Source: a virus. Taken from it: a DNA stretch of 27,876 nucleotides. The position numbers and the translations under genes were made by a program. The notes under the pieces were generated by a model that was not told where the DNA came from, made no database searches, and worked only from the letters and a program-made list of their open reading frames with translations. The stretch's first letter is position 1. Every line of letters starts with the position of its first letter. The stretch is from the IMG/VR virus record IMGVR_UViG_3300034198_002994, positions 1-27,876 of that record, one strand, 5' to 3'. Shown piece by piece: positions 1,870 through 27,875 of this stretch.

Positions 1870-1982
1870 CCCTGTTCACCCTCTGCGGATTGTATAGTTT
1901 GACTTCTGAGGATTGCATAGTTCATCCCTGCTCGCTTTCCAACATACCCATTCAAATCGGGGTGATAATACCTAATTCCCAT
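1866..1982 (-). CDS. Possible small protein, 38 aa, at the repeat scar
   Basis: A frame starting MGIRYYHPDLNGYVGKRAG whose ATG overlaps the end of the PAPS-reductase-like gene and whose TGA overlaps the next start. It spans one copy of the 19-bp direct repeat, which encodes part of KRAGMNYA here, and it ends SAEGEQG, much like the 81-aa protein upstream of the cassette (GGEQG). It may be a genuine gene, or the remnant of a shorter reading frame (MNYAILRSQ...) that existed before the cassette arrived. Low confidence as an expressed gene. Confidence 0.35.
   Translation of the reverse strand: MGIRYYHPDLNGYVGKRAGMNYAILRSQTIQSAEGEQG
1915..1933. repeat. 19-bp direct repeat, copy 1
   Basis: The plus-strand sequence gcatagttcatccctgctc is identical to the copy at 2907-2925. 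The two copies flank the PAPS-reductase-like gene. On the coding strand the repeat covers a GGATGA stop-start junction followed by a second ATG. Confidence 0.9.
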
Positions 1983-2910
1983 AAGACGCCTCAATTTCGT
2001 CACCATTGCACGAAAACGGCGAACAAGTAAAAACCTCACCGTCAAACAAGTCACCTTTTGACATTGCTATCTCGGCCCTCGTTAACCTTTCAACCGGTGC
2101 CTCATCCAATGGCACTAACGAACGGTGCAAATAAAACTTCCCTCGCAACTCGTTGCCATTGGCTAAGGCTCGAGGGTTGCCGTTTCTTATCGCTTTATCA
2201 AACGCGACAGCATCTTCCCATTCATCAGGTTTTTCATTTTTCATAATTCGCCATTGGTCATTTCCATGAAAAGGACAACCGATGCAAGAAGATTTAGGAG
2301 TATTTCCAAAAGAAGTAGACGCTAGATAAGTTAAACAGTCTCCCCTACTCCATCCCATCTCTAACAAAGGAAAACGATGCTTAATGTAAGATACCTGCGA
2401 ATCTTTGGCTCTCTGAATTTCGTCTTTGCTAATGCCTATCCATTGTTCTAACTGTTGACCTTTTTTTACTCTTCCTACCTTGCCGTGTTCGTTTACTTCT
2501 GCACCTAATAACTCTCTAACTTTTCTAGTAATGGGTTTTATTTTATATTCCCTCGTGCATTCGCGCCTTGCCATGCCAGGCGACCCGTCAACATTTTTAA
2601 CAAACATCGGCATCGAGGCAAAACGGCTCTCGGGGTTTAATGCGTCGTTGCGGATGTTCCCCGCCGACACCCGATAAATTGGAATATTGGCTGGCTTGGC
2701 AATTTCTTCATCTAAGCGGTTCAGGTGTTTGTAAACGGAAGCAGGCTCCCATCCCGTATCGGAAAATATAGCCGCATCTAATTTAGGTATTTCACCCGCA
2801 GCGGAAAGCAGCAGAAGCGTAGTGGATTGCACTCCTGCCCCTAATGAAAGTATTTTCATCTTATCTCTAATAACTGTATCGGTTGAGATATTCTTTTTCA
2901 CGTTCCGCAT
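1972..2910 (-). CDS. PAPS reductase-like (adenine nucleotide alpha hydrolase) protein
   Basis: A 312-aa protein of the phosphoadenosine phosphosulfate reductase / ATP-pyrophosphatase fold. The PP-loop is LSLGAGVQSTTL (about residues 21-32). TGW and RECTREYK motifs follow, and the second half has a Cys-rich SSCIGCPFHGNDQW segment. Phage members are common; they are suspected to act in sulfur chemistry or nucleic-acid modification, without a fixed role. The longest start is ATG 2908-2910 inside the direct repeat; MKILSLGAG at residue 18 is how many relatives begin and has a weak purine-rich site upstream. The gene is clearly more AT-rich than its neighbours (about 35-45% GC in hand-counted lines against 50-55%). 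With the flanking 19-bp repeats this suggests recent acquisition. Confidence 0.85.
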   Translation of the reverse strand: MRNVKKNISTDTVIRDKMKILSLGAGVQSTTLLLLSAAGEIPKLDAAIFSDTGWEPASVYKHLNRLDEEIAKPANIPIYRVSAGNIRNDALNPESRFASMPMFVKNVDGSPGMARRECTREYKIKPITRKVRELLGAEVNEHGKVGRVKKGQQLEQWIGISKDEIQRAKDSQVSYIKHRFPLLEMGWSRGDCLTYLASTSFGNTPKSSCIGCPFHGNDQWRIMKNEKPDEWEDAVAFDKAIRNGNPRALANGNELRGKFYLHRSLVPLDEAPVERLTRAEIAMSKGDLFDGEVFTCSPFSCNGDEIEASYGN

Positions 2911-8849: not shown

Positions 8850-8955
8850 GGTTTACCTCATCTTGTTTATCTAGTAGGCAGTCACAATCCGTGTGCGGAT
8901 TGGAACACTTGGAATGCAACCAAGTACCTTGGTCAGCACACCAAATCTCGGTCAC
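8836..8955 (-). CDS. Cys-rich microprotein, 39 aa
   Basis: Reads MTEIWCADQGTWLHSKCSN... with four Cys (C6, C17, C24, C26 in DCDC) and His residues, so a small metal-binding fold is possible. The GTG start overlaps the lysin stop (GTGA at 8952-8955), and its end overlaps the 65-aa gene by 14 bp. No ribosome-binding site is seen, consistent with coupling to the lysin. No family recognised. Confidence 0.5.
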   Translation of the reverse strand: MTEIWCADQGTWLHSKCSNPHTDCDCLLDKQDEVNRGNA

Positions 8956-9464
8956 TTTTTAGGTTTGACCGCAGGTGGGACTACATCACCAGCAACATAA
9001 CGAATATGCCACGGCTCGCTGTCATCCTCCCAAGAAAAACCAAACGACTGTGCATACTTCAACAGCCACACCAACCTGGCACCAGTTGCATCTTTGACAT
9101 CAACAGCCAAACCCCAACCATGGTTGCTAGTCCCAGGAACAGCAGCACCAGCCTTACCAGGCTTCAGCCACCACAGTTTTCTCATGTACTTCTTAGGCTT
9201 AGACATACGAAGCGTGTTGTCGTACCGCTTCAAGAACGTAATCTGCTGCACTTGCAGCGGACGGTACGTATCAGCAGCGCTGGTAGGTTCCAGCGTGATG
9301 CCATCCTTAGCGGCAGCAGCAACCATTGCCTTCCACGCCTTAGCAGCCGTGGAACACAACCTGCCGCCCTTGATAATGACCAATGGTGGATTACCTAGTT
9401 GACCGTTAGACATGCCATGCAGTTCCGCAGGCATCACCACGGGAGCAATAGGGTACTTCCTCAT
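8952..9464 (-). CDS. Endolysin, M15/VanY-type peptidase
   Basis: A 170-aa single-domain peptidoglycan peptidase. The visible family signature is ADTYRPLQVQ near residue 64, then TSNHGWGLAVDVKD (zinc ligands H115 and D122) and EPWHIRY (catalytic Glu 150, zinc ligand H153). It would cleave stem peptides of host peptidoglycan at lysis. There is no separate cell-wall-binding domain and no signal peptide, so release depends on the neighbouring holin. The ATG at 9462-9464 overlaps the holin TGA (TGATG); an in-frame TTG one codon upstream is less likely. Confidence 0.88.
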   Translation of the reverse strand: MRKYPIAPVVMPAELHGMSNGQLGNPPLVIIKGGRLCSTAAKAWKAMVAAAAKDGITLEPTSAADTYRPLQVQQITFLKRYDNTLRMSKPKKYMRKLWWLKPGKAGAAVPGTSNHGWGLAVDVKDATGARLVWLLKYAQSFGFSWEDDSEPWHIRYVAGDVVPPAVKPKK

Positions 9465-9700
9465 CAACTTGCTACCACCTGGTCAACAACACCTTCAGTA
9501 GTCAATGACGGACCCTCAGCCAAACCAACCTTCACCGAAGCAATGGATGTAAAAATTGAAAGGATTGCTGCAAAGGCTGCACCAGATGCAACCTTTGTCA
9601 AGTCGCCCCAGGCAACTAGGGAAGCAGCAGCAAAGAACTGTGCAAACGTCTTAAGTGCACGCTCGGCAACAGCCATCCAAAAGAACTTGTCGGTAATCAT
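9464..9700 (-). CDS. Holin, r1t type
   Basis: A 78-aa protein with the start seen in r1t-family holins (FFWMAVAERALKTFAQFFAA) and two hydrophobic segments (about residues 17-33 and 38-56). It would form lesions in the cytoplasmic membrane so that the lysin reaches the wall. It is directly upstream of the lysin and overlaps the 79-aa membrane gene by ATGA (9697-9700). Confidence 0.85.
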   Translation of the reverse strand: MITDKFFWMAVAERALKTFAQFFAAASLVAWGDLTKVASGAAFAAILSIFTSIASVKVGLAEGPSLTTEGVVDQVVAS

Positions 9701-14478: not shown

Positions 14479-15459
14479 TCAGGTCTTGTTGATGCTTGAC
14501 GAGGATTCGATGCGGTACAGCGCAGACTCGCGGAAACGCGACCAACCGAGCATTCCGTGCCAACCCACAGGGCGGAAACGGTTCAAACGGTCAATGATGG
14601 GACCCATGACAAGGTGCGGTTCAATCGCCACAGCCTCAGCAATAGCCTGCTGGCCGCAGATGATGGTACGGAAGTTGCGTGCACTGGAAGCACCATCAGT
14701 TGCGTTGTACATACGTGGGGTTTCCACAAAGTACGCACCATTCACAACACCGATAACACCGTTGAGGATGTTGCCAACATTGTCCGAGGTGTACTTGCGG
14801 ATGTCCTCAAAGGAACCCTGAATCACACCGCCAGTGGTGCCAGCCTCAGCGCGAAGGTCGTGAGAAACCTCAGGGTGGATGTAACCCGCGTAGAGCGAGC
14901 CAAGGCGCGGCAGAGCGTTACCTGCACGCAACTTTGCAACAGCGCGACGAATGTTCGCGTTGGTGAGAAGGTCAGTACCAGCAATGGTTCCTGTACTGGT
15001 GGCAGCGCCTGCGTAAATCACGTTGGTACCTGCACGGGCAACAGCCATGATGAGAGCGTCAAGAGAGTCAGCCATGTTGTAGGCAACAATGTTTGCGATA
15101 GCGGGGTCGATGTCACTGAACGCAAGTTCAGCCAACTTCTTGGTTTCCAACACAACGTTGCCGTACTCCCTCAGAGTGACGGTCACGTTGGTGGTGTTGC
15201 TCAATGCGTTAGCGTCTGGGTCAACATTTTCATCAATGTATGTAGACACAGCAGCAAGGTCGGAGTAGATGTTAAACACCACAGACGAACCTGGCATTGC
15301 CTGCTGAACAGGACGCTTGTCCACAACAGAACGGAACAACGGTTGCGAGCGGAGAGCAAACTCCACATAGCGGTCATACGCCGACTGCACCAGGTTTGTA
15401 GGACCTGACGTAGTACTAGTCAGCGTACCCGCGCCAATAGCGGCGGGATAGGTAGACAT
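14479..15459 (-). CDS. Major capsid protein
   Basis: A 326-aa protein with the features of an HK97-fold capsid subunit of the N4-gp56-like type: N-terminal arm (LVQSAYDRYVEFALRSQPLFRSV), E-loop region with SVVFNIYSDLAAVSTYIDENVD, spine helix (SDIDPAIANIVAYNMADSLDALIM), and the P/A-domain segment AGYIHPEVSHDLRAEAG. It builds the icosahedral head. I place the start at ATG 15457-15459, with GGGGG 11 bases upstream, rather than four codons earlier. A TATAAA at 15495-15500 (minus) could be an extra promoter. It follows the scaffold gene and precedes the capsid-proximal hairpin. Confidence 0.88.
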   Translation of the reverse strand: MSTYPAAIGAGTLTSTTSGPTNLVQSAYDRYVEFALRSQPLFRSVVDKRPVQQAMPGSSVVFNIYSDLAAVSTYIDENVDPDANALSNTTNVTVTLREYGNVVLETKKLAELAFSDIDPAIANIVAYNMADSLDALIMAVARAGTNVIYAGAATSTGTIAGTDLLTNANIRRAVAKLRAGNALPRLGSLYAGYIHPEVSHDLRAEAGTTGGVIQGSFEDIRKYTSDNVGNILNGVIGVVNGAYFVETPRMYNATDGASSARNFRTIICGQQAIAEAVAIEPHLVMGPIIDRLNRFRPVGWHGMLGWSRFRESALYRIESSSSINKT

Positions 15460-15468
15460 GAGGCAAAA

Positions 15469-15487
15469 CACCCCCTTTCAAGGGATG
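15469..15487 (-). promoter_or_regulatory. Hairpin enclosing the capsid ribosome-binding site
   Basis: The minus strand reads CATCCC, loop TTGAAAG, GGGGTG: six pairs (one G-U) that bury the G-rich ribosome-binding site of the capsid gene. This could tune capsid translation or respond to translation of the upstream scaffold gene. Confidence 0.4.
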
Positions 15488-15504: not shown

Positions 15505-16041
15505 TTAGAAAGCAGAAGGACCACTCGGGTTACCGAACAACAATGTGTTCAGTTCTTCTGCCGATGACGCGGAAGCAATCAAAGACTGCAACTGTCCTGG
15601 GTCGCCTGCGTACGGGTTGCCTGCACTTGCAACCTGAGCGTTCGCCTGCATAGTGGCAATGTTCGGGTCCAACATTGCTGGTGTCGTAACACCAGGAATG
15701 CCACCCGTTTCTGCCTGTGCCGTTTCCTGTGCAACAGGAGGAGCACCGAAAACATCCCCGTACTCATCAACCCACTTGGCAATCGCTTCTTCCGAGTTTT
15801 CAACTGACTCTGGAATGAAAGATGCAATCTTGGGGTTTAGACCACGGGACTGAAGCACATCCTTGACCGAACGGTCACGAACCTGCTTCGACATGGAGGT
15901 AAGAGTCTCTTCCAGTTCCTTGATGCGGGCAGCCTTAGAACGGTCTGCTTTTCGCAACTCCTTGAACTGGCGAGAGTCCTGACCAGAATCCACGTCTTCA
16001 TCCTCGTCCCAATAGTTGTCGTCATATGTTTGAGTGCTCAT
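15505..16041 (-). CDS. Capsid scaffolding protein
   Basis: A 178-aa acidic, helical protein. It has a very acidic N-terminus (YDDNYWDEDEDVDSG), a charged coiled coil (about residues 25-55, FKELRKADRSKAARIKELEETL), a KDVLQSRGLNPKIASFIPE helix, and a flexible Ala/Gly/Pro-rich tail ending LNTLLFGNPSG. Size, charge and position just before the major capsid gene are typical of phage scaffolds, which guide prohead assembly and leave before DNA filling. The ATG has AAAGGGAGA 4-12 bases upstream. Its leader contains the tRNA-like element and two hairpins. Confidence 0.82.
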   Translation of the reverse strand: MSTQTYDDNYWDEDEDVDSGQDSRQFKELRKADRSKAARIKELEETLTSMSKQVRDRSVKDVLQSRGLNPKIASFIPESVENSEEAIAKWVDEYGDVFGAPPVAQETAQAETGGIPGVTTPAMLDPNIATMQANAQVASAGNPYAGDPGQLQSLIASASSAEELNTLLFGNPSGPSAF

Positions 16042-16238: not shown

Positions 16239-17102
16239 TTAGAAAGAATCCCCACCAAGACTTGTGTTGTTTACACCAGAAGAACCCGACCACCTGGCTG
16301 CCTCACGGGTGGCACGGTCACGAGACTTCAACAACTTTTCCCTGTCATTCTTCAACAGGGCGTCAATGTTGTCTGTTGCCTTGTAGGAAGCGTCTTTCTC
16401 AACACCTGCAAGACGTTCATCCTGAGCGTTCATGTCACCAATGGTGGCAAACTTGTCACGAATCTGAGTGGCATCCATTTGAGATGCAACAGTGTCTTGG
16501 GCGTACAACTCAGCCTGTTGCTGAGTCAACTGCAAATTAGCCGCAGTCTGGGCAGCACCAGCAATACGAACCGCCTGCACAGTGCGAGTAATCTCATCCC
16601 TAGACTTCTCAGGGTCAAGGACATACTTTGTCAACGTGTCCATGGGGACGCTGTACAAATCTTGCAATGCTTTACCCTCATCAGAGTTCGCCACAAACTC
16701 CTTCGCAGCAGCCACACGCCGAGCAACCTCAGTCGGTGCAATGTCCTTCAACATGAACTGACTGACATCTTCAGGGGTGTCATAAAATCCTGGAACACTT
16801 TTCAACGCATACTTGTACGACTTGTACATCGCCATGTAGTTTGCTTCGTTAACAACCAAAGGTGTGCCATCAGAGTTAGAAAAACCCTGCCTCTTCAACT
16901 GGTCAATGTTTGGAAAAATCCGCCTGTACGCATCGGTATTGCGCATATAGTCCATCAACTGGTCCGCATTCTTAGTGCGGTTACCTGCCTGATTTTTCCA
17001 ATAGGTTGCGTTCACTGCCAGACTCGACAAGTCGGCACCATCAACACCATACGAAGCCATTCGTGCAATGAACATGTCAACGGCATTCGATTTGTCACCC
17101 AT
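16239..17102 (-). CDS. Probable internal virion protein, 287 aa
   Basis: An almost wholly alpha-helical, charged protein without membrane segments. The N-terminal half has ATYWKNQAGNRTKNADQLMDYM and YMAMYKSYKYALKSVPGFYD. The C-terminal half is a long Gln/Ala-rich coiled coil (GAAQTAANLQLTQQQAELYAQ and onward) and ends in a Ser/Gly tail. It belongs to the block of helical proteins between portal and scaffold, and is probably packed in the head and ejected with DNA. Family not recognised. Five bases after the stop begins the tRNA-like element. Confidence 0.6.
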   Translation of the reverse strand: MGDKSNAVDMFIARMASYGVDGADLSSLAVNATYWKNQAGNRTKNADQLMDYMRNTDAYRRIFPNIDQLKRQGFSNSDGTPLVVNEANYMAMYKSYKYALKSVPGFYDTPEDVSQFMLKDIAPTEVARRVAAAKEFVANSDEGKALQDLYSVPMDTLTKYVLDPEKSRDEITRTVQAVRIAGAAQTAANLQLTQQQAELYAQDTVASQMDATQIRDKFATIGDMNAQDERLAGVEKDASYKATDNIDALLKNDREKLLKSRDRATREAARWSGSSGVNNTSLGGDSF

Positions 17103-18092
17103 TTACATGAACCCCATTCGTGTAAGCATGTCATTAGCCAACTGGCTGTACTCGTCATTAGCGTTCTGGGTCGTCAACCAGCGAGGGTCACCCTTCACCA
17201 TGTCATCAAACTCAGACAACGTGGTCTTAGCCTGCGTGCCGTCAGCCGTAGTCGAAATGAAACCCTTACCAAGTTTCATCAACGGGTCATCAAAAGTAAT
17301 CTGGTCCTCAGGAACCTCAAGCAAAGCAGCAGCATGCTTGCGGTACGCGGCTGTCGCCGTTGCCAACGTGTTCGTCAACGACAAATCCTTAGCAAAAGGC
17401 TCATACACAGTTTTGGCTGTGTTCAACACATCACCCATGACATGCACCACGTCCTCACCACCAGCAAGCCTGCGACGATAACCAGCCTCCTCAGAGGCTG
17501 AAAGAGTCACGCCCATGTCCTTGGCGTACTGAAGAAGTTGTGTTGATGCAGCAGTGTCAGAAAACGAGTTAGCGTCACCAAGAACATCAACCGAGTTGTT
17601 TAAATGTGTGTCTTTACCCTTGACTATCTTCTTGCCAACAACCACAGCATGACCAATGGCAGCCTGCTTCAACTGCTGGTCGTTGAAGCCGTACAGATAA
17701 GCGTTGCGTGTAAGCAAGTCAATCTGAGCGCTATTAAGATTTAAACCAGATTCGTTTAATGTGTTCTGAACTTCAATACGCTTCGTTGCCAAAGCGTTAT
17801 TAAACTCACCAGGGTTTTGGCGTTCCTGAACGAACCTGGCTTTGAACGTGGCATTGTTGGAACGCCACCAGTCAGAGTTCTCAATTTGCCTCTGGACGAC
17901 ATCAACGGGAAGAGGCTTCTTCGCGTTCTTGCCGCTAACCGCAGCAAGGATGAGGTTCTTCAACTCGGGAATTGCCAACATCGCTGTGTAACTGGCAGGA
18001 TACTTTGCCATAAACGAAGTAACAGATGCTGGAACCTTTGGCTTTTGCTTTGCTTTAGGTCTCGGTACAGGTTTCTTATCAACAACAGCCAC
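17103..18092 (-). CDS. Probable internal virion protein, 329 aa
   Basis: A basic N-terminus (KKPVPRPKAKQKPKVP) followed by helices. The middle has SDWWRSNNATFKARFVQERQNPGEF and LTRNAYLYGFNDQQLKQAAIGHAV; the C-terminal third has LATATAAYRKHAAALLEVPEDQI and EFDDMVKGDPRWLTTQNANDEY. A tryptophan followed by 'ratifying' repeats of helix-loop units recalls ejection proteins of short-tailed phages, but I do not recognise a named family. GTG start; the stop is directly followed by the ATG of the 287-aa gene. Confidence 0.6.
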   Translation of the reverse strand: MAVVDKKPVPRPKAKQKPKVPASVTSFMAKYPASYTAMLAIPELKNLILAAVSGKNAKKPLPVDVVQRQIENSDWWRSNNATFKARFVQERQNPGEFNNALATKRIEVQNTLNESGLNLNSAQIDLLTRNAYLYGFNDQQLKQAAIGHAVVVGKKIVKGKDTHLNNSVDVLGDANSFSDTAASTQLLQYAKDMGVTLSASEEAGYRRRLAGGEDVVHVMGDVLNTAKTVYEPFAKDLSLTNTLATATAAYRKHAAALLEVPEDQITFDDPLMKLGKGFISTTADGTQAKTTLSEFDDMVKGDPRWLTTQNANDEYSQLANDMLTRMGFM

Positions 18093-18097
18093 TTAAC

Positions 18098-18967
18098 TCA
18101 CGCACCCTTCAACATGTTCTCAAACATTTCCATATACGAGGTAGCAGTATTTGCAGCAGCCTCGTTATGCAAAGCCCCGCCCCAGATTTGGTCGTCCATG
18201 AACGCTTTGCGGTCAGCATCGGACACACCACCAGTCGTCTTAGACGACGATGTGCCCGTCAAGTTGTTCGTAGTGCTTGTTTGCATAGTTGGGTTCTTAG
18301 CCTCATAAGAACGCAACGCTGTACCCAATGCGCCAATCTCGGCATCAGTAGCATTGCGACCAAGAGCAGCCGTTAACACAGCCTGCGCAAGAGACTTAGC
18401 CGTCTCAGGCTTAGTGATGTTTTCTGCCGTGTAAGTGCTAGACGAAAAATTCGAAACATGTCCACCTAACGACGACTGCCCACTAGCAACAGCCTTGCCC
18501 CCGCTAGACATGTTCAGCAACGTCATGGGCGTGTAATACACGCCACTGCCAGCAAGTTCCATGCTCTTAATGCCAAGTTGTTTCCACGCATCAAACGCAT
18601 CCAAGTAGTTCATGCCACTCTTATTTGTCATCAACCCAGCGGCAACAGAACGCAAAACAAAATTGGCACGCCACTTAGGGTCAGTCCACTTCGTCGCAAA
18701 CTCTTGGTAATACTCCGTCATCCCGTTGTAGTAAATGGGGTCAAGGGAGTGATGTGCACGTTTGTTATACTTGAAAGGTGCTGGAGCCAAACCACTAAGA
18801 CTGCCGTTAGCAGTCGTACCCACCAACTGGTCCATCTTCGCTTGCAAGTCTGCTTGAGTTTCAGAAGCAGGAGTAGTCGGTTTGCTTTGCGCAGTGCCGC
18901 CACTTGGCGGCATGGTAATAGTTGGTGCTGGCTTCGGCGTTGGCTTTGTTTCGTTCCTAATTGGCAT
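18098..18967 (-). CDS. Probable internal virion protein, 289 aa
   Basis: A Pro/Thr/Ser-rich disordered N-terminus (ETKPTPKPAPTITMPPSGG, about residues 5-45), then helical segments with DPIYYNGMTEYYQEFATKW, NYLDAFDAWKQLGIKSMELAG, and TAALGRNATDAEIGALGTAL near residue 200, a short repeat-like helix pair. I chose ATG 18965-18967, which overlaps the end of the giant gene by 11 bp, because the 16 codons upstream merely read across that gene. It is likely a partner of the giant protein in the ejected complex; no family recognised. Confidence 0.6.
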   Translation of the reverse strand: MPIRNETKPTPKPAPTITMPPSGGTAQSKPTTPASETQADLQAKMDQLVGTTANGSLSGLAPAPFKYNKRAHHSLDPIYYNGMTEYYQEFATKWTDPKWRANFVLRSVAAGLMTNKSGMNYLDAFDAWKQLGIKSMELAGSGVYYTPMTLLNMSSGGKAVASGQSSLGGHVSNFSSSTYTAENITKPETAKSLAQAVLTAALGRNATDAEIGALGTALRSYEAKNPTMQTSTTNNLTGTSSSKTTGGVSDADRKAFMDDQIWGGALHNEAAANTATSYMEMFENMLKGA

Positions 18968-21900
18968 ACCTAGCCACCACCTTGTCGTTAGCGAAGTACT
19001 TGTCAAACCAGTCATTGAAGCCAGTAGAACGTAGTTTCAGGTCAGACAAAATTTGCAAGTATGGACCGTAAATGTCAGCGTTGTCTTGCGCTTCAGCACT
19101 AGGTGAACCGCCCTGTTGTTCACGCTCAAGCAAACGGTTGTTAAGTATGTTTCGCGTCTGAAGGAACACCGCAATGCTTTTCATCAAAGGGTCACTGCCG
19201 TGGTCCTTCATGAACACAGAATCAGTAGTCAACAATGTCTCAAAGTAATCAGCACGACGCTGATACTTTGTGCTGTCAGAACTGAAGTAATCGTTAGACC
19301 ATTCTTTGTTCGTAGCAGCAACCTCTTTGGCAAACATGGTCTTACGTTCGGTAACCCACCGAGCAACATTTGGGTTGTCTAACGAGTAACCCAAACTGCG
19401 AACCTGAGCCTCAAGCATGCTTGTGAACTTAGAGAACTGCACCCAACCAACTTGAGCCTTAGCCAAAGCCAAGTTTTCTTTCGAATCAGCCTTAGACCGA
19501 TACGTGTCAGCACCAGCAGCAGGACTGTTACTCATCTGCCACTGGTAGGCAGCCTGCGAGAACTTCGCTGGGTCATACGCGCCAAGCCCATAGTTTCCAA
19601 TGAAACCAACCACCTCAGGAATGTTGTGACCTGAAGCAAGCGAAGCAGATTCGTGATACCTCTGTAAATTGGCTGTCACCTCATTGCGAGCCTGTAAATG
19701 ACTAGGGTTGCTCGACTGTGGTGTTAACACAGCCCACGCCTCAGGGTGTGCCTGCAAGAACCTGTAGTCAGCCTCACCCTGTTGCGGGTAAGCCTTCTGC
19801 ATGCGACGCAACTCTTCAGCCAAATACGTCACATCGTTTGCGTAACTAATAGACACAGGCGAAGTCAAGTTGGTCAACGTCTTCAACATGAAATAAGATT
19901 TCGTCTTATTCATGACCTCATCATCAAGCGGAAGGTCTGGGCGCAAACCCTGCTCGTACTGAATCTGCTCATGCTTAGCAATCATGTTGTAGGCACTAAC
20001 AAAACGAGCATTGTTCATTGCATTTTGTACTGTGTAAACGTTGCGAATAGCCGAAGCCATGAACATGCCAGGACCATCCTCAGGCAACCCAGTCGGAAAC
20101 ACAAATTTCAAAAAATCTGCCTGTGACGGCTTGTTCTTCAAAAACTCATACAACGGTGCGGCAGCAAGTGGACCCAAGTCAGGTCGCAACGGGTTCCCCT
20201 GAAATACCACATCCATCGACTTCAATGGAACTCTACCAGCAAAGTTTTCAAGAACGTCACCAACAGGTCTCAAACCAGGGGTGTTCTTCAACATTTTGCT
20301 AGCAGTCTTTGTCAAGAACGAAGGAAGGACAATCCAATCCTTGTTCAAGTCAACATTGTTGAAGTTTTTGACACGGTTGCCCTGCGAATCAAAAATTGGC
20401 AAGTCAGTCAAGTGTTGCGAAATTAACTCCGAAGGAATGAGGAACCGTTCAGGCTTCCGCCACAAAAATCCTGACCAACGCCGCAACTGGTTATCCCAAG
20501 CGTTGTAGAACGGCGAAGCCAACACGACAAGGCGTGATGAACCAGCACCACTCCTTCGGTCAATGTTGAACAATGTTTGACGCACGTTCTCGTAGGCGTG
20601 TACACGACCCTGATTTGATAACTTGTTCATCTCGTCAATAGTCAAATCACGACCCAAATACTGGTGTGCTTGACCAATCTTCTCGTCCATGTACTGCTTG
20701 TAAAAACCGCGAGCCAACGGGTGGCGAGCCATGGTGTCTTCAGGAATAGAACCAAGGTGCCTGAAGAACCACCTGGTCGTTGACTGCCACACACCCCTGT
20801 TCATGCTTTCCCGACTAGCCTCATGACCAGTTGGGACGAGGCGACCAACAATCTTTGGCAAGTTGCCTTGCTGGTCAACAAACTTGTTTATCAAGAACGA
20901 TTCATTTGCTTGACCACTTGCCCAGGCATCACGAATGTCATTGGGAAGATACAGGCGCACTGACGAGTCAAGGTCGTGAATCTTCTTTTCCAAATCCCTG
21001 AACTGCCACGACATGTTCCGACGGTAGTCGGAACCTTCCTTCGTTCCCTTCAACCAATTAACTAACGATTCCTTTGACTCACCAGCCATCAAACGCTCAA
21101 CAAGTGGGTCAATGCGACCACTGGCAGAGTCACGGAAGTGATGGTTGAGGATGTTTGACCACGCCTCAAAGTAACGTGACTCCTGTGGCGTGATTTCACT
21201 AGAAACCATTGCTGACGGACCAGCCTGGTACGCCTTCTGGTAGCCAGACAGCGACTCAAACGAATCAGTTGATGACAACAACCTGTGCGTAATCTGACCC
21301 TCAGCAGTGTTGTTCTGATAGATACCAGGAACGAACACGCGACCAACCCCAGGAATATCCTTGTAGTAGCCATCCATGCCCGTGACACGCTTCTTGCCAA
21401 TCCGCTCCAACTGGTTTACACGTTGTTCATGTGCAGCAATCCGTAAACGCAACTGGTGCTCAGCATCCTTCTGCTTCTGTGCAAGTGAACGCAAAGCATC
21501 AGGCAAGTCGTTGCGAACCATCTCCCGCAACGTTTCCTTGTCATAGTCAGGGTGAACCATGCGGTTGTTCAAACCGTTCAATCCAGCATTTTGACGGTAA
21601 TTCTGGTAGAACTCCTTGCGCTCTGCGCGTGTGGCAGCCATTGTTCCCCAACGGAAAGTCCGAGACGTAACATCTGCGTCAGGAACAATCGGGTTCATGC
21701 CAGCGCGCAACTCACCCATGTAGTCATGCAAGTGGCGTTCAACAACATGCTTTGGCGCTGCTGCCGCAGATGCGGAGCGGGAGAAGAACTCAGGGAATGC
21801 AATAACAACATGACCACCATGAGCCTTGCGGTCAGCAAGTTCAATCTTTCCAACATTGTTCTCTTTGCCCCACTGTGACATGACCTGGCGAACCTCAGGG

Positions 21901-24900
21901 TCATCAAACTTCCTGTCACGCATCCACACACGCCACTCAGCGTTCGATGTGACACCTAAAGCATCACGCAACGACTGCGGGACATTGGTCCACAATTTGG
22001 CATCCTGCAAACCCCCATACACCAACACCTTCTTGGTAACAGGAACATCTGCTGCTTTGCGTGAACGAAACAAAGTACGTTCAACGTTCACCTTTGCCAA
22101 GGTTGCATCGTCAAGCATTTTCTCAAGGTCGGCTGGTTTCATAGTGCGCCAACCAGCAGCACCACGAGTCATCTGAACAACCTCGCCAGCATTGGCGCGG
22201 TCAAGTGCCTGTTGAATCATGGCGCGCTTACGCTCAACCATTTTTGCTGTTGACTTCAAGCCAGCGGGGGACAACTCGATAGGTCCGGCGGGGAGTTCCT
22301 TGAGGTTAATCTTGTTGGTGTTCTTGAAGATTGCCAGCACATCGTGATTTCTCTGCCGACCCCTGCCTGCGGTAGCAACTCCGCCAGTGTGAATCAAGCC
22401 GTCGTAGCCGTTTTCCTTCAATGCATCGCCAAGGGCTTTTGCTTGAAAACTATTAGTGCTGAGCGTGATTATCGCACGCTGTTCGTATCCCGCACTGCCG
22501 CCACCCGATTCTTCCTTCTTCACGGCTACGACGGTCTTCTTAAGACCGTCAACGAAGGCAGACTCAATCGAGTCAAAAGGCTCGGAGGGAACGTATTCGG
22601 CAATCCTCTCTTCGAGGATGCGAACATAACTGTTAAGAACCTCAGGAGCAACCTGAGCCAAGCCAGTTTTTTCCAGCATCGAATCACGGAGGTCAAGTAC
22701 TTTCGCCCTTTGACCATTCTTCAACGTGACACGGTAAACGGAACCTCCACCGTTCTTCCCGCTTGCATACTTCTTAGCAATTTGCGAACTGTCGGTGGCA
22801 AAGAAATCAGCAAAGAACCAGTTCTGGATTTGAAGTTCTTTACGGTCCGCAAGGGTGATTTTACCAGTAGAGGAAGAACCATGAAACATGCCCTCCGTGA
22901 ACAAACGCTCGCCAGCACCCTTTGGGTTGCGACCCATCAAGTTCAAGTTCTGCTCGTTAAAGTTCTCAATGCTGAAATAGTTATGGGCACGGTCAGCCCA
23001 CTGGTTAGCCATACCCTCGTTATGTGACATTGCAATAGGCTCAGTAACTTTTACCGAGTTAGCAGCATTAGGGGAACCATGAAATAACCAGTCACCCTCA
23101 TGCTCTGCACGCAACCGTGCAGCCAACTGCAACGTTTCCGTCTTATAGTCAAACCAAGCCAGAGCCTCAGCAGAAATTGGTGTGCCATTGGCAAGGTGGT
23201 TACGTATCTCACGCACAAAGTCAACGTCTTCAGGGTTCACGTGCACACCAGCGCGAGCCAATGAAGCAGAAACATGGTCCTCAACATTTTGCAACGCTTG
23301 CAAAACAGCAGACTGCTCGGACACTTTCTGCTGGCTAACCTTCAAATCTTCACGCACACCAGCCTTGACAAGCATGTTGTCAACCAAGTGACGTGAACCA
23401 ATGACACGGTTAGCAGTCCACGCCTTTAACGCATCACCACCAACAGTGGTCATAGACGTGAAAAACATTCCCGATGCAAGCATCGACAAGTATGCTTCGG
23501 TGATATTACGGATGGTGTAACCAAAACGCATTAACGCCGACACTTTGAACACGTCGTTGAAACGTGTAGCCCAATCAAGACCAGTGTTAACAGTTGTCGA
23601 GTACCACGCGTTAAGCGTACCAGCACCATGCCTTGAAACAGCGTTGTCAAGTTCACGCAAGTTTGGCAAAAACATGTCATTGGCTGATGTGCGTTCAAGA
23701 AGCGGGTCAGCAATAGAAACAGGCAGTCCATCCTCATTGAGAATGGAAATGAACCCGCGTTCCTGGAACTGTTTCAACCCTTGAGCAGTCTTCTTCCGAA
23801 ACTCGTTACGCAAATACTTTGCAGCATCAACCTTTAAGTCTGGGTGCTTTGCAAGAACCAAGTTCTCCATACGTTCCGTCAAACCGTTGACGACGGACTG
23901 CTTGTCACCAATGTGTTGCGCTTCCATGAAACGGTTCACCCAGGCGCGACCCTCACCAGTGGATGACAAGCGACCACCAAGAATACGGTCAGCATCAGCC
24001 ACATACGCTGAAATCTCTCGCATTGACTCGTTGCCGTAGTTCAAACGGGCAAGACCAGACGGGCGGAACGTGTGAAAGAAATCAACAGTGTTCTTGACAG
24101 CCTTGCTGGTTCTGTCAATGACAGCAATCGTTGGGTGCGAACTTGTGATTTGTTGATAAATGACATCAGGGTCTTCATACACTGAACGAACACCAGTAGC
24201 CGAAGCAGCACCCTGGCGAACTGGTGAAAACTTTTGGTCAGCGACCTCAGCAACTTTTCCAAACTTTGCAGCACGACGCGCTGCACGATTCATTGACAAG
24301 TTTTGCATGAACTCAGTTGGCGCAAAGTCAGTTGTCAATGCTGGTGCAGGGCTGCCCATGATTTCTTCAAGACCCTTGCGGTATGCGGCAGATGCTTGCG
24401 ACGTGGGAGCATCAACACTCTTCACATACTTGTCAATCATTGCACCATGCTGACGAAGAATTACATCATCGTTGACAAACGAACTAGGCAAACCGCTGTT
24501 GTCCATCATTGCCACACGCGATTCGCGTGAACCATTTGCAAGGTTGTCAAGAATGTACTGGTACTCGTCATCAACCACATGCTTCTGCGCTAAGCGCAGC
24601 ATTGTGGCAGTGTTGTCTGCCTCAGTTCCAGTCTTAGTGAGCAAACGAAAAACGTCAGCCACTTCTTCAGGTGTTGACGCTTGACCAAGCATGTACCCAG
24701 CAGTGGTTTGAACAGAACTGTCCACATTCCTGCGAACAATCTTGTGGTTTGCTGCGTACACGGAATCGTTGTCAGCAAACTCTTTCAAAGTTTTGTACAA
24801 GCCACCAGATTCTGTTTCAGTGGCTGTGTCTAACTTGCGCCCGTACTCCGACAACGTGGTGTAACCAGGGCGACGGAAACCAAGCAACTTGGGAACACTG

Positions 24901-25766
24901 CTTGCTGTTTCGGCAGCATCGCCAATAATTCCAGCATCGCGAAGAAGTTTTGGTCCTGTTAGGACGCGGCGAACCCCACCCATACCAAAGGAAGCATAAG
25001 TAAGAGGGTCGGTTGCAATGTCGTAAACAAGATTTTCAAACTTGTCCCCGCCCTCAAAAGGTGCATTGGAGTTTTCAAACCATGCTTTGCGAGCCTCAGG
25101 TTCCCACGGGTTGATGAGGCGGTGCTGCCGCTCAAAGTCAACTTTATCCGACCCAGCCTTTTGAACCTGGTCATAGCCAGCACCAACTCCAAGAGCAGAA
25201 GCAGCCCAACTTTCGCCCCAGTTCTTGATGCCATCCCAGATTTTTTCTGGTGTGTCAGTAATACCTGAAACAACGTTAAAAGGTGTATCGCCTGGGTTAC
25301 TGCCAGCAGAGTTTTTTACTGCTGATGACAACTCACCATAAGTAGGACTCTCAACACGGTCAGGGTGAATTACGCTGTCTAGCAACATGCGGTTGTAGTC
25401 GTTTTGCGACTGCCCTTGGCGGTGGAAACGGTCATACTCGCCAAGCGACAGCAACGCAACACCAGTGCGTTGAACAGGTGGGGCTACAACATTGTCAACA
25501 GCAGCAAACGCGTTAAGTCCTACTTTGATAGGTTGAAAAGCAAGTTCGCCTACAGCACCAACAGCAGAACCAAGTGAGTCACCAGCAGCACGCTCAGCAA
25601 GACTTACACTTCTTATCAAGTTATCAACAATGGGCTTGTTGTTACTGAACAGGCTGCCAAAATCGTGGATGGTATCACCAAGGTCTGACAAGCCACCCTT
25701 ACCGTGAAAACCTTTCCAAAACCATCTGTCGTGTGTCCACGAATCTAAAGAATCAAACCAACTCAA
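18957..25766 (-). CDS. Giant internal virion (polyvalent-type) protein with ADP-ribosyltransferase-like domain, 2269 aa
   Basis: One uninterrupted frame covering a quarter of the window. The N-terminal region is helical with NLVYDIATDPLTYASFGMGG. A hydrophobic helix pair (about 745-775) contains RFGYTIRNITEAYLSMLASGM. Residues about 890-1150 look like an ADP-ribosyltransferase of the kind found in phage polyvalent proteins: WLFHGSP (H896), MFHGSSS (H962), FFATDSSQIAKKYA (from F989), GGSVYRVTLKNG, YDGLIHTGG (Y1121) and HDVLAIF (H1141). Later come helical stretches and SPFYNAWDNQLRRW (about 1751-1764). No tape-measure repeats are seen. It starts with TTG overlapping the previous stop (TTGA). 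Probable role: carried in the head and injected to act on the host or to form the DNA channel. Structural location is inferred from position between portal and scaffold. Confidence 0.75.
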   Translation of the reverse strand: MSWFDSLDSWTHDRWFWKGFHGKGGLSDLGDTIHDFGSLFSNNKPIVDNLIRSVSLAERAAGDSLGSAVGAVGELAFQPIKVGLNAFAAVDNVVAPPVQRTGVALLSLGEYDRFHRQGQSQNDYNRMLLDSVIHPDRVESPTYGELSSAVKNSAGSNPGDTPFNVVSGITDTPEKIWDGIKNWGESWAASALGVGAGYDQVQKAGSDKVDFERQHRLINPWEPEARKAWFENSNAPFEGGDKFENLVYDIATDPLTYASFGMGGVRRVLTGPKLLRDAGIIGDAAETASSVPKLLGFRRPGYTTLSEYGRKLDTATETESGGLYKTLKEFADNDSVYAANHKIVRRNVDSSVQTTAGYMLGQASTPEEVADVFRLLTKTGTEADNTATMLRLAQKHVVDDEYQYILDNLANGSRESRVAMMDNSGLPSSFVNDDVILRQHGAMIDKYVKSVDAPTSQASAAYRKGLEEIMGSPAPALTTDFAPTEFMQNLSMNRAARRAAKFGKVAEVADQKFSPVRQGAASATGVRSVYEDPDVIYQQITSSHPTIAVIDRTSKAVKNTVDFFHTFRPSGLARLNYGNESMREISAYVADADRILGGRLSSTGEGRAWVNRFMEAQHIGDKQSVVNGLTERMENLVLAKHPDLKVDAAKYLRNEFRKKTAQGLKQFQERGFISILNEDGLPVSIADPLLERTSANDMFLPNLRELDNAVSRHGAGTLNAWYSTTVNTGLDWATRFNDVFKVSALMRFGYTIRNITEAYLSMLASGMFFTSMTTVGGDALKAWTANRVIGSRHLVDNMLVKAGVREDLKVSQQKVSEQSAVLQALQNVEDHVSASLARAGVHVNPEDVDFVREIRNHLANGTPISAEALAWFDYKTETLQLAARLRAEHEGDWLFHGSPNAANSVKVTEPIAMSHNEGMANQWADRAHNYFSIENFNEQNLNLMGRNPKGAGERLFTEGMFHGSSSTGKITLADRKELQIQNWFFADFFATDSSQIAKKYASGKNGGGSVYRVTLKNGQRAKVLDLRDSMLEKTGLAQVAPEVLNSYVRILEERIAEYVPSEPFDSIESAFVDGLKKTVVAVKKEESGGGSAGYEQRAIITLSTNSFQAKALGDALKENGYDGLIHTGGVATAGRGRQRNHDVLAIFKNTNKINLKELPAGPIELSPAGLKSTAKMVERKRAMIQQALDRANAGEVVQMTRGAAGWRTMKPADLEKMLDDATLAKVNVERTLFRSRKAADVPVTKKVLVYGGLQDAKLWTNVPQSLRDALGVTSNAEWRVWMRDRKFDDPEVRQVMSQWGKENNVGKIELADRKAHGGHVVIAFPEFFSRSASAAAAPKHVVERHLHDYMGELRAGMNPIVPDADVTSRTFRWGTMAATRAERKEFYQNYRQNAGLNGLNNRMVHPDYDKETLREMVRNDLPDALRSLAQKQKDAEHQLRLRIAAHEQRVNQLERIGKKRVTGMDGYYKDIPGVGRVFVPGIYQNNTAEGQITHRLLSSTDSFESLSGYQKAYQAGPSAMVSSEITPQESRYFEAWSNILNHHFRDSASGRIDPLVERLMAGESKESLVNWLKGTKEGSDYRRNMSWQFRDLEKKIHDLDSSVRLYLPNDIRDAWASGQANESFLINKFVDQQGNLPKIVGRLVPTGHEASRESMNRGVWQSTTRWFFRHLGSIPEDTMARHPLARGFYKQYMDEKIGQAHQYLGRDLTIDEMNKLSNQGRVHAYENVRQTLFNIDRRSGAGSSRLVVLASPFYNAWDNQLRRWSGFLWRKPERFLIPSELISQHLTDLPIFDSQGNRVKNFNNVDLNKDWIVLPSFLTKTASKMLKNTPGLRPVGDVLENFAGRVPLKSMDVVFQGNPLRPDLGPLAAAPLYEFLKNKPSQADFLKFVFPTGLPEDGPGMFMASAIRNVYTVQNAMNNARFVSAYNMIAKHEQIQYEQGLRPDLPLDDEVMNKTKSYFMLKTLTNLTSPVSISYANDVTYLAEELRRMQKAYPQQGEADYRFLQAHPEAWAVLTPQSSNPSHLQARNEVTANLQRYHESASLASGHNIPEVVGFIGNYGLGAYDPAKFSQAAYQWQMSNSPAAGADTYRSKADSKENLALAKAQVGWVQFSKFTSMLEAQVRSLGYSLDNPNVARWVTERKTMFAKEVAATNKEWSNDYFSSDSTKYQRRADYFETLLTTDSVFMKDHGSDPLMKSIAVFLQTRNILNNRLLEREQQGGSPSAEAQDNADIYGPYLQILSDLKLRSTGFNDWFDKYFANDKVVARYAN

Positions 25767-26215
25767 ATTGCACCACGCAGATACTGGATGGCGGCACGCG
25801 TAGAATCAGACACAGAAGGGTCGTCAGCAAACTTCAACAAAATTGGAAGCGCAGCGCGAAGCGTGCGCAACTGGTCAGGACTTTGCGCAGGCGGAAGCGC
25901 ACTCATGCCAGGACCAGCACCAATATCTGCACCTGCCGTTACAGGCTCATTAGGAAACTGTGTAGGTGCATTAAATGGGACAACCGATGAAGCGTTACCT
26001 GTCGCGCCTTGACCCTGTGGTGCTTGCGCCGCTGTACCGCTACTAGCCATCGGTGCCGATGTTTGAAGGTCATAGAAATCTTGACCTTCACCGTACGGAA
26101 GCCCAGACACATACTGTGCCCCCTGCTTCCCATCAGTACGCTTACTCATGGCACCAGGACCAGACACTGGTGCAGGATTGGAGGGTTTACGGTAGCCACC
26201 ACGACTGTCAGCCAT
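25763..26215 (-). CDS. Conserved actinophage structural-module protein, 150 aa
   Basis: The N-terminus RGGYRKPSNPAPVSGPGAMS followed by KRTDG, and a mid-part NAPTQFPNEPVTAGADIGAGPG, match a family I know from many actinobacteriophage genomes near the portal; its function is unknown. The middle is Gln/Gly/Pro-rich and disordered; the C-terminus is a short helical unit (LRTLRAALPILLKFADDPSVS). The ATG has a strong AGGAGGT site. It overlaps the giant gene by TTGA. Confidence 0.75.
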   Translation of the reverse strand: MADSRGGYRKPSNPAPVSGPGAMSKRTDGKQGAQYVSGLPYGEGQDFYDLQTSAPMASSGTAAQAPQGQGATGNASSVVPFNAPTQFPNEPVTAGADIGAGPGMSALPPAQSPDQLRTLRAALPILLKFADDPSVSDSTRAAIQYLRGAI

Positions 26216-26642: not shown

Positions 26643-27875
26643 TCAAAGCCGATTGCGAACGGTTGCCCTAAAGGAAGGGTTACCTCCATTAGTCAAACCA
26701 GCCAACAACTCGTTCAAACCCTGAGGGGCTTGCTGTTGTGGACTTGCTTGACTTATAAGCCCAGCCGCGCCAGCAGGAGCCTGCTCAGGGGAGCCGCCCA
26801 TGCTGCTAGTTTCCGCACCTGGCATCTCAACTGGTGGCGCGGTGGGAACTTCGGGGGCAGGTTCAGGGGCGAAAGCCTTAGCAACAAGGTCTTCGATTTG
26901 GTCACCCTTTTGTCGTCCCTGGATGATGACACTCAACTTGCTAAGCATGGGGGTGGGGTCTTGACCAGCAGCAGCCATCTGGGGGATGGATGCAGCAACT
27001 TGAGCCAACGCTTGTTTAAGCGTGTCTCGCATTGTTTCAACGTCAATCTTTTGTTCTTCTTCAGTGGCGTTTAACGCGAAAGGCATTTGACGACGCAGGA
27101 AGTCACGAGAGATAAGTTGGTCTCCGCGTGCTTGTAAACCAAACACCAAAGCACGGTTGGGGTCCAACCCAGCCATAAGACCGTATTGAACATCAACCGT
27201 GTAATCACCTGCAATGTCACGCGATGCACGGTACCGAACCTCATACGGTGTACCGTCCTGCATGCCACGCATGGACTTCTCTGTGTCGCCAAAAACTTTT
27301 TCGTCAACCTCAAGGCATAGCCCAATAAGGTTGGTGAAAGCGCGAGCAAACATGGACTGTGCGGTGCGAATCTGAGTATCAAATCCAGACATCAACGCTT
27401 GCACACCACGACCTGTGACAATGGAACCGTCAACGCTGCCATTGCGCGCGTCTGGGTAACGTGACCCTGCGCGTAGTTCGTTGTCCAGTTCAGCCTGCTG
27501 CGCAAACGCAACCTGCGGAACCTCTAATGGAATGCGGCGAATCTTCTCAGGGGTTTGAGTGCGCAAAATTGCGTCCGACCCGAACGCTAATTCCTGCATG
27601 TCAAACGGAACCGCAATAGGTGCTTGAATGGACTTCTGTGCTGCTTCCAAAGCAAGCAGCGCAAAACGAGACTTGGCTACCTGTACAGAAAGTACATCAT
27701 CAAACTGACCGTGTGGTTCGTCATCAAGTCCTGGGCGTCGAAGGATTTCCACCATGCATTTGCCGATGACGTTTTTTGCTTGCGACAAAATAAGACCTTG
27801 GCGGTGCGGCAGGAACAACATGTCCACGTCTTTGTCGTGGTAACGCACAACCTCAACACTGGTTGCGTTGCGCAT
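26643..27875 (-). CDS. Portal protein, C-terminal part (start beyond the window)
   Basis: A 410-aa open part of a phage portal protein. Visible are DMLFLPHRQGLILSQAKNVIGK, a stem/helix region SVQVAKSRFALLALEAAQKS with AIAVPF-like residues, the clip-like RGVQALMSGFDTQIRTAQSMFARAFTNLIGLCLEVDEKVF helix (typical of actinophage portals), and a disordered Pro/Ala/Gln tail from about residue 335. Portals form the dodecameric DNA gate at one capsid vertex. The frame is still open at the right edge, so the N-terminal part lies outside. The shown first Met is an internal one. Confidence 0.8.
   Translation of the reverse strand: MRNATSVEVVRYHDKDVDMLFLPHRQGLILSQAKNVIGKCMVEILRRPGLDDEPHGQFDDVLSVQVAKSRFALLALEAAQKSIQAPIAVPFDMQELAFGSDAILRTQTPEKIRRIPLEVPQVAFAQQAELDNELRAGSRYPDARNGSVDGSIVTGRGVQALMSGFDTQIRTAQSMFARAFTNLIGLCLEVDEKVFGDTEKSMRGMQDGTPYEVRYRASRDIAGDYTVDVQYGLMAGLDPNRALVFGLQARGDQLISRDFLRRQMPFALNATEEEQKIDVETMRDTLKQALAQVAASIPQMAAAGQDPTPMLSKLSVIIQGRQKGDQIEDLVAKAFAPEPAPEVPTAPPVEMPGAETSSMGGSPEQAPAGAAGLISQASPQQQAPQGLNELLAGLTNGGNPSFRATVRNRL

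What the first reader, a model, noticed from the sequence alone, without database searches (positions are those of the whole stretch)
18957..25766. 2269-aa virion protein carrying an embedded ADP-ribosyltransferase-like domain
The sequence shows ART-like motifs (HGS, FFATD...KKYA, VYRVTL, YDG, HDVLAIF) in order within about residues 890-1150 of a giant protein encoded between portal and scaffold. Established knowledge: ART domains occur in polyvalent proteins of phages and plasmids that enter a new host together with DNA. Inference: this phage may inject a toxin-like modifier that alters host factors at the start of infection.
Basis: partly seen in the sequence, partly recalled or inferred. 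Interest (0 to 1): 0.68.

Follow-up and report, generated by a model that had tools for sequence, protein, structure and literature searches.

The report
ADP-ribosyltransferase domain in giant phage protein
A giant protein encoded among the capsid and tail genes of a virus of bacteria carries an inserted enzyme domain of the kind that tags proteins with ADP-ribose, and the same insertion recurs in related viruses, so it probably rides in the particle and acts when the virus enters a cell; the general theme is known, but this protein family and its altered active site are not described as such.

Summary
On the MINUS strand, window 25766-18957 encodes 2269 aa between portal and scaffold. Residues about 952-1160 are an ADP-ribosyltransferase (ART) domain: Pfam ART-PolyVal E=6e-5 (below its gathering score); an independently built viral ART profile gives 31 bits (best control 6.5), a subfamily profile 52 bits; AlphaFold2 with 23 sequences (pLDDT 71, pTM 0.70) matches ARTs, including an ART-like part of the cyanophage A4 pre-ejectosome (Z 11.5), diphtheria toxin (9.9) and MbcT (8.7). 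The domain lies in a 700-aa insertion after a conserved helix motif. Related giant proteins found through the ART alone (L230, L234, L295, fragment L292) carry it in the same slot, with the same gene order; the three full-length ones group with this protein in a core tree, and 38 other relatives lack it. The protein is otherwise PHROG 10618, an unannotated family of podoviruses (Beephvirinae gp9). The active site is atypical: His962 kept, Tyr replaced by Phe989, the acid replaced by Val1143 with an invariant His1141 two residues before (HxV, 57 of 59 subfamily members). Packaging, injection and catalysis are inferred, not shown. New variant of a known theme (polyvalent/virion ARTs).

The parts
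18957..25766 (-). giant virion-block protein, 2269 aa, TTG start, member of PHROG 10618 (gp9 of Beephvirinae)
   Evidence: (phrog_10618 E 1.2e-39 on the C-terminal part)
22287..22913 (-). ART domain, residues about 952-1160
21297..23399 (-). insertion slot, residues about 790-1490 (700 aa here; 103-266 aa in the 40 other cluster representatives)
23451..23555 (-). conserved helix motif just before the slot (residues 738-772, KVSALMRFGYTIRNITEAYLSMLASG)
23397..25766 (-). N-terminal core, residues 1-790
18975..21299 (-). C-terminal core, residues about 1490-2264, best conserved part of the family
   Evidence: core profile 627.7 bits
22881..22883 (-). His962, strand-1 His, invariant
22800..22802 (-). 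Phe989 at the strand-2 Tyr position
22380..22409 (-). GYDGLIHTGG, residues 1120-1129, subfamily signature
22338..22346 (-). His1141-Asp1142-Val1143, strand 5; Val stands where other ART-PolyVal domains mostly have Glu
26643..27875 (-). portal protein (truncated by contig end), phrog_104
   Evidence: 47% identical to the Dennebes portal
25763..26215 (-). 150-aa gene, homologue of Dennebes gp7 (phrog_8200)
18098..19015 (-). homologue of Dennebes gp10 (phrog_13037)
17103..18092 (-). homologue of Dennebes gp11/gp12 (annotated minor tail proteins)
16239..17102 (-). homologue of Dennebes gp13
15505..16041 (-). scaffold-position gene (phrog_7813)
   Evidence: position as in Dennebes
14479..15471 (-). 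major capsid protein (phrog_1357; PF13252)

Best explanation
This is a podovirus giant internal (ejection-type) virion protein whose helical core has acquired, in one clade, an ART domain inserted at a fixed slot. Most likely course: the protein is packaged near the portal, leaves the capsid with the DNA, its core helps DNA delivery, and the ART domain reaches the host cytoplasm and mono-ADP-ribosylates a host factor early in infection, as phage T4 Alt does. Shown here: the ART fold, the insertion, the recurrence in the same slot, and the conserved virion gene order. Inferred: packaging, ejection, catalysis, target.
For: ART identity: (the profile's top PDB matches are diphtheria toxin, tankyrases and PARPs, though weak, best E 0.0085). 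Insertion between conserved halves. Recurrence: a 10-residue ART pattern scanned over viral contigs returned loci whose giant ORFs proved to have the same core (L234 727 bits, L230 718, L295 428, L292 177) with the ART after the same helix motif. Synteny terL-portal-gp7-giant protein-gp10/gp11-12(-gp13-scaffold) in L234 and L295, and in L230 in part. ART carriers cluster with support 0.97; 0 of 38 others carry it. A Beephvirinae phage with this gene is a podovirus by electron microscopy (Abafar, PMC11536984). Structural precedent: cyanophage A4 pre-ejectosome chain, entry 9k3a residues 1421-1606, Z 11.5; the ART profiles also find Anabaena phage A-4L gp27 residues 1418-1600.
Against: No virion proteomics here. 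The core has no detectable homology to A-4L ejectosome proteins (0.4 bits) or to any informative solved structure, so 'ejection protein' rests on position and morphology. The catalytic acid is absent (Val1143) and the Tyr is Phe989, so the domain could be inactive. No target is known.
Confidence: 0.55

Rival explanations
1. The domain is an ART-fold pseudoenzyme with a structural or binding role inside the internal virion complex; it is not an injected enzyme.
For: Val at the acid position and Phe at the Tyr position; the A4 match lies in an ordered pre-ejectosome chain, so ART-like parts can be built into such an assembly; pseudo-ARTs such as PARP13 exist (PMC7955679).
Against: His962, the aromatic residue, YDG-x2-H-x-GG and HxV persist across very divergent sequences (18-28% identity between this ART and those of the ART-bearing relatives), and the relatives keep the Tyr; human PARPs listed as H-Y-I or H-Y-L are mono-ADP-ribosylating (PMC7955679).
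Confidence: 0.27
2. The domain acts against host defence: it modifies or consumes an NAD+/ADP-ribose-type defence component or a restriction factor as the DNA enters.
For: ARTs are the commonest protein-modifying domains in polyvalent proteins, proposed to act at entry (PMC5512222; PMC9503650).
Against: No direct evidence here for a defence target; it is one sub-case of the best explanation.
Confidence: 0.12
3. The similarity is chance motif order in a long helical protein; there is no ART.
For: The Pfam score is below the gathering cut-off and the single-sequence fold failed (pLDDT 32).
Confidence: 0.03

Closest known systems
ART-PolyVal (PF18760), ARTs of polyvalent proteins, prototype Roseovarius Plymouth podovirus 1 vRNAP (CBX87992.1)
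   Same: fold, HG[ST] strand 1, strand-2 aromatic-x-T, A..YA helix, YDG, strand 5; embedded in a giant protein of a phage
   Different: strand-5 acid replaced by Val with an invariant His two residues before; GG after YDG; the host protein is not an N4-type RNA polymerase but the PHROG 10618 family
Cyanophage A4 / Anabaena phage A-4L gp27 (pre-ejectosome, PDB 9k3a)
   Same: podovirus; ART-like part embedded in a large protein; best structural match of the domain
   Different: no detectable homology of the rest of the protein; different phage family (Saffermanviridae)
gp9 of Beephvirinae (Streptomyces podoviruses), PHROG 10618
   Same: homologous core, same gene order from portal to capsid
   Different: 1557-1696 aa in the Beephvirinae-like group, no ART; slot about 100-110 aa instead of 700
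Phage T4 Alt
   Same: model for a head-packaged, injected ART
   Different: R-S-E type ART in a separate protein; not of the same ART clade by the features listed in PMC5512222

Membership tests
ART superfamily | ART fold | tested here: met
   AlphaFold2 model pTM 0.70; VIA-align Z 11.5, 9.9, 8.7, 8.2 to ART-like A4 chain, diphtheria toxin, MbcT, NatT; BFVD prob 1.00 to ART-PolyVal proteins
ART-PolyVal (PF18760) | score above the curated gathering cut-off (31.2 bits) | tested here: not met
   best 24.2 bits, E 6.2e-5
Tox-ART-HYD2 clade (PMC5512222) | His in strand 1 | tested here: met
   His962, aligned with all members
Tox-ART-HYD2 clade (PMC5512222) | Tyr in strand 2 | tested here: not met
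   Phe989; Phe also in 2 of 23 aligned members of the wider family and in the prototype phage's domain
Tox-ART-HYD2 clade (PMC5512222) | acid (Asp; Glu in most aligned relatives) in strand 5 | tested here: not met
   Val1143 by alignment; subfamily has HxV in 57 of 59
PHROG 10618 / Beephvirinae gp9 family | homologous C-terminal core and gene position | tested here: met
   E 1.2e-39; synteny
Polyvalent proteins | several distinct effector domains in one virion-associated protein | tested here: inconclusive
   one effector domain found; rest of the insertion (1165-1480) unassigned
Podoviral ejection proteins | present in virion and ejected with DNA | not testable with these tools
   needs virion proteomics or cryo-EM

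The most novel reading that the evidence does not exclude
A distinct ART subfamily with an H-[Y/F]-V site and an invariant His at the -2 position is carried as cargo in a fixed slot of a podoviral ejection protein, delivering an unusual mono-ADP-ribosylation (or another NAD+ reaction) at the first step of infection.
Probability: 0.3. Interest if true: 0.72.

Novelty: new variant of a known kind. Interest (0 to 1): 0.52.

Why it matters
It assigns a testable activity and a cargo slot to a large uncharacterised protein family (PHROG 10618) of cultivable Streptomyces-phage type, whose ART-free relatives provide a natural control, and it points to an ART subfamily whose conserved His replaces the usual acid region. 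Together with the A4 pre-ejectosome it suggests that ART parts in podoviral internal proteins have arisen more than once, which bears on how short-tailed phages disarm or reprogram a cell at entry.

Tried and rejected
Single-sequence AlphaFold2 of residues 880-1176 was worthless (pLDDT 32). Close-relative scans with the whole protein or the ART segment found none; tblastn of the segment in phages found none and in plasmids only a chance hit. One collection pattern had a reading-frame error (6 instead of 7 N) and gave only 8 loci; repeated correctly. An alignment of half-domains misaligned and was dropped, as were alignments that mispaired the SVYRVTL strand. Profile matches of the core to AopB and plectin look like coiled-coil artefacts. 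A genome-contig scan with the family alignment found no cellular relative. PF18760 in 50 records of relatives: none at E<=1; that set did not include the ART carriers found later. Asp1142 was considered as the acid, but the alignment puts Val1143 there and Asp1142 is not conserved. The first HGS (896) as strand 1 was rejected because the profiles start at 960.

Full report
WHAT IS THERE. The frame is on the minus strand, window 25766 to 18957, 2269 residues, TTG start; the start overlaps the upstream stop as TTGA. Upstream are portal and a homologue of Dennebes gp7, downstream homologues of gp10, gp11/12 and gp13, then a scaffold-position gene and the major capsid protein.

THE PROTEIN FAMILY. 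By tblastn the C-terminal third matches gp9 of 26 Streptomyces phages at 21-23% identity; by profile it is PHROG 10618, function unknown (E 1.2e-39). A family search of IMG/VR gave 119 encoding relatives, 80 kept; full-length ones span about 1550 to 3175 aa. The Beephvirinae phage Abafar, whose gene is annotated only as hypothetical, is a podovirus by electron microscopy (PMC11536984).

THE INSERTION. In an E-INS-i alignment of 41 cluster representatives, residues about 1-200, 560-790 and 1480-2269 of this protein are shared by most members, while most of 800-1480 has almost no counterpart. Between the two flanking anchors this protein has 700 residues and the others 103-266. The N-terminal half is aligned less securely than the C-terminal half.

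IS IT AN ART? Pfam ART-PolyVal is the only general family found: E 0.0094 on the whole protein, 6.2e-5 on residues 954-1159, 6.5e-6 in a genome-scale search, always under the gathering score. To test this independently I collected viral ART domains by a DNA pattern for YHG[ST]...GxxY/F-x-T...A..YA (pattern modelled on the published prototype, Roseovarius Plymouth podovirus 1) and built a profile from 34 non-redundant sequences. It scores this protein at 31.2 bits (E 1.1e-7 for 10,000 sequences); 200 shuffles and all relatives reach at most 6.5 bits. A second pattern, GYDGxxHxGG, taken from this protein, retrieved a subfamily. A profile of 22 of these, aligned without this protein, gives 52.2 bits (E 4e-13 for 100,000 sequences); with the retrieval motif masked in this protein it still gives 23.7 bits, best shuffle 5.9. 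With a 23-row alignment (A9) AlphaFold2 gives pLDDT 70.7 and pTM 0.70. Foldseek in PDB is weak but puts the ART toxin MbcT first (E 0.041, prob 0.93); VIA-align gives Z 11.5 (160 residues, rmsd 3.2) to a cyanophage A4 pre-ejectosome chain, 9.9 to diphtheria toxin, 8.7 to MbcT, 8.2 to NatT, then cholix, ParT, PARPs and KptA. Among viral models the best are polyvalent and ART-PolyVal proteins (E 1e-5 to 1e-3, prob about 1.0). The prediction was helped by an alignment of ART sequences, so it is not fully independent of the profile evidence.

THE SAME CARGO IN THE SAME SLOT. When the ORFs of the ART loci were scanned with the core profile, several of them belonged to this very family: L234 (727 bits), L230 (718), L295 (428) and the fragment L292 (177). 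They were retrieved only through the ART motif. L230 also holds the sequence closest to this ART (phmmer E 3e-11 in an 82-sequence set). In the three full-length ones the ART follows the helix motif [LM][LM]R[LF]GYTxRN. L253 is a weaker case: its core match is marginal and its ART lies elsewhere. L234 and L295 have terL, portal, the gp7 homologue, the giant gene, gp10 and gp11/12 homologues in order; L230 agrees from the end of terL on. In a FastTree of the C-terminal core (midpoint root) the four ART carriers with that core group together (support 0.97), and the other 38 tips carry none. Relationships inside the ART group are unresolved (0.10), with long branches, so a single gain is likely but not proven.

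THE ACTIVE SITE. In the wider viral ART set the columns read His (strand 1), Tyr (21 of 23, otherwise Phe), and Glu in 15 of 23 at the strand-5 position. Here they are His962, Phe989 and Val1143; the subfamily keeps Tyr but has HxV at strand 5 in 57 of 59 distinct sequences, and this protein has His1141-Asp-Val1143. The published definition of ARTs of polyvalent proteins is H-Y-D (PMC5512222). Human PARPs with Ile, Leu or Tyr at the acid position are listed as mono-ADP-ribosylating, and PARP13, which lacks the His, as inactive (PMC7955679). So a mono-transferase is possible, but a pseudoenzyme is not excluded.

HOW IT PROBABLY WORKS. Podoviruses eject internal proteins with their DNA (established knowledge). 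Position in the head-tail gene block, podoviral relatives and the A4 precedent make this protein a candidate internal protein. In Anabaena phage A-4L the matching segment is in gp27, 1717 aa (ART profile hit 1418-1580, 17.9 bits); the rest of gp27 shows no homology to this family. That A-4L gp27 is the chain in 9k3a is inferred from the matching residue range. The A4 structure paper (doi 10.1073/pnas.2423403122, cited in PMC12810830) could not be read here. ARTs of polyvalent proteins were proposed to modify host proteins at entry (PMC5512222), and about 44% of phage ARTs sit in contexts suggesting head packaging, although only about 3% of podoviruses were found to encode ARTs (PMC9503650).

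VERDICT. The ART reading is right (confidence about 0.95 for the fold), delivery in the virion is likely (about 0.75), and catalysis on a host target is plausible (about 0.55 overall). It is a new variant of a known kind: an ART with an altered site in a fixed slot of an undescribed giant podoviral protein family.

Noticed in passing
L010:1863-10133, L077:297-9824: Two relatives have about 1740 and 1970 residues before the conserved helix motif, against about 640-740 in most, so other large additions sit in the N-terminal half; no Pfam family found in them.
   Followed up: partly
window 18957-25766(-), residues 968-976 and 1306-1314: The strings GKITLADRK and GKIELADRK recur inside the insertion, the second shortly before GGHVVIAF, which resembles an ART strand 5; possibly remains of a second domain, possibly chance.
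   Followed up: no
window 1-27876: No tRNA gene, whereas Beephvirinae carry a tRNA array between gp13 and scaffold.
   Followed up: no
window 1972-2910(-): 312-aa protein that reads like a PAPS-reductase-type ATP pyrophosphatase (SLGAGVQSTTLLLL...FSDTGWE); no Pfam match at E 0.001.
   Followed up: partly
window 8952-9467(-): VanY-type D-alanyl-D-alanine carboxypeptidase (PF02557, E 2.5e-14), probably the endolysin.
   Followed up: yes
L275, L283: Some giant viral ORFs (3235 and 3693 aa) show the YDGxxHxGG ART signature twice.
   Followed up: no
L012, L064, L077 and relatives: A second clade without ART has 220-266 residues in the slot, more than the 103-139 of the Beephvirinae-like group; unidentified.
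   Followed up: no
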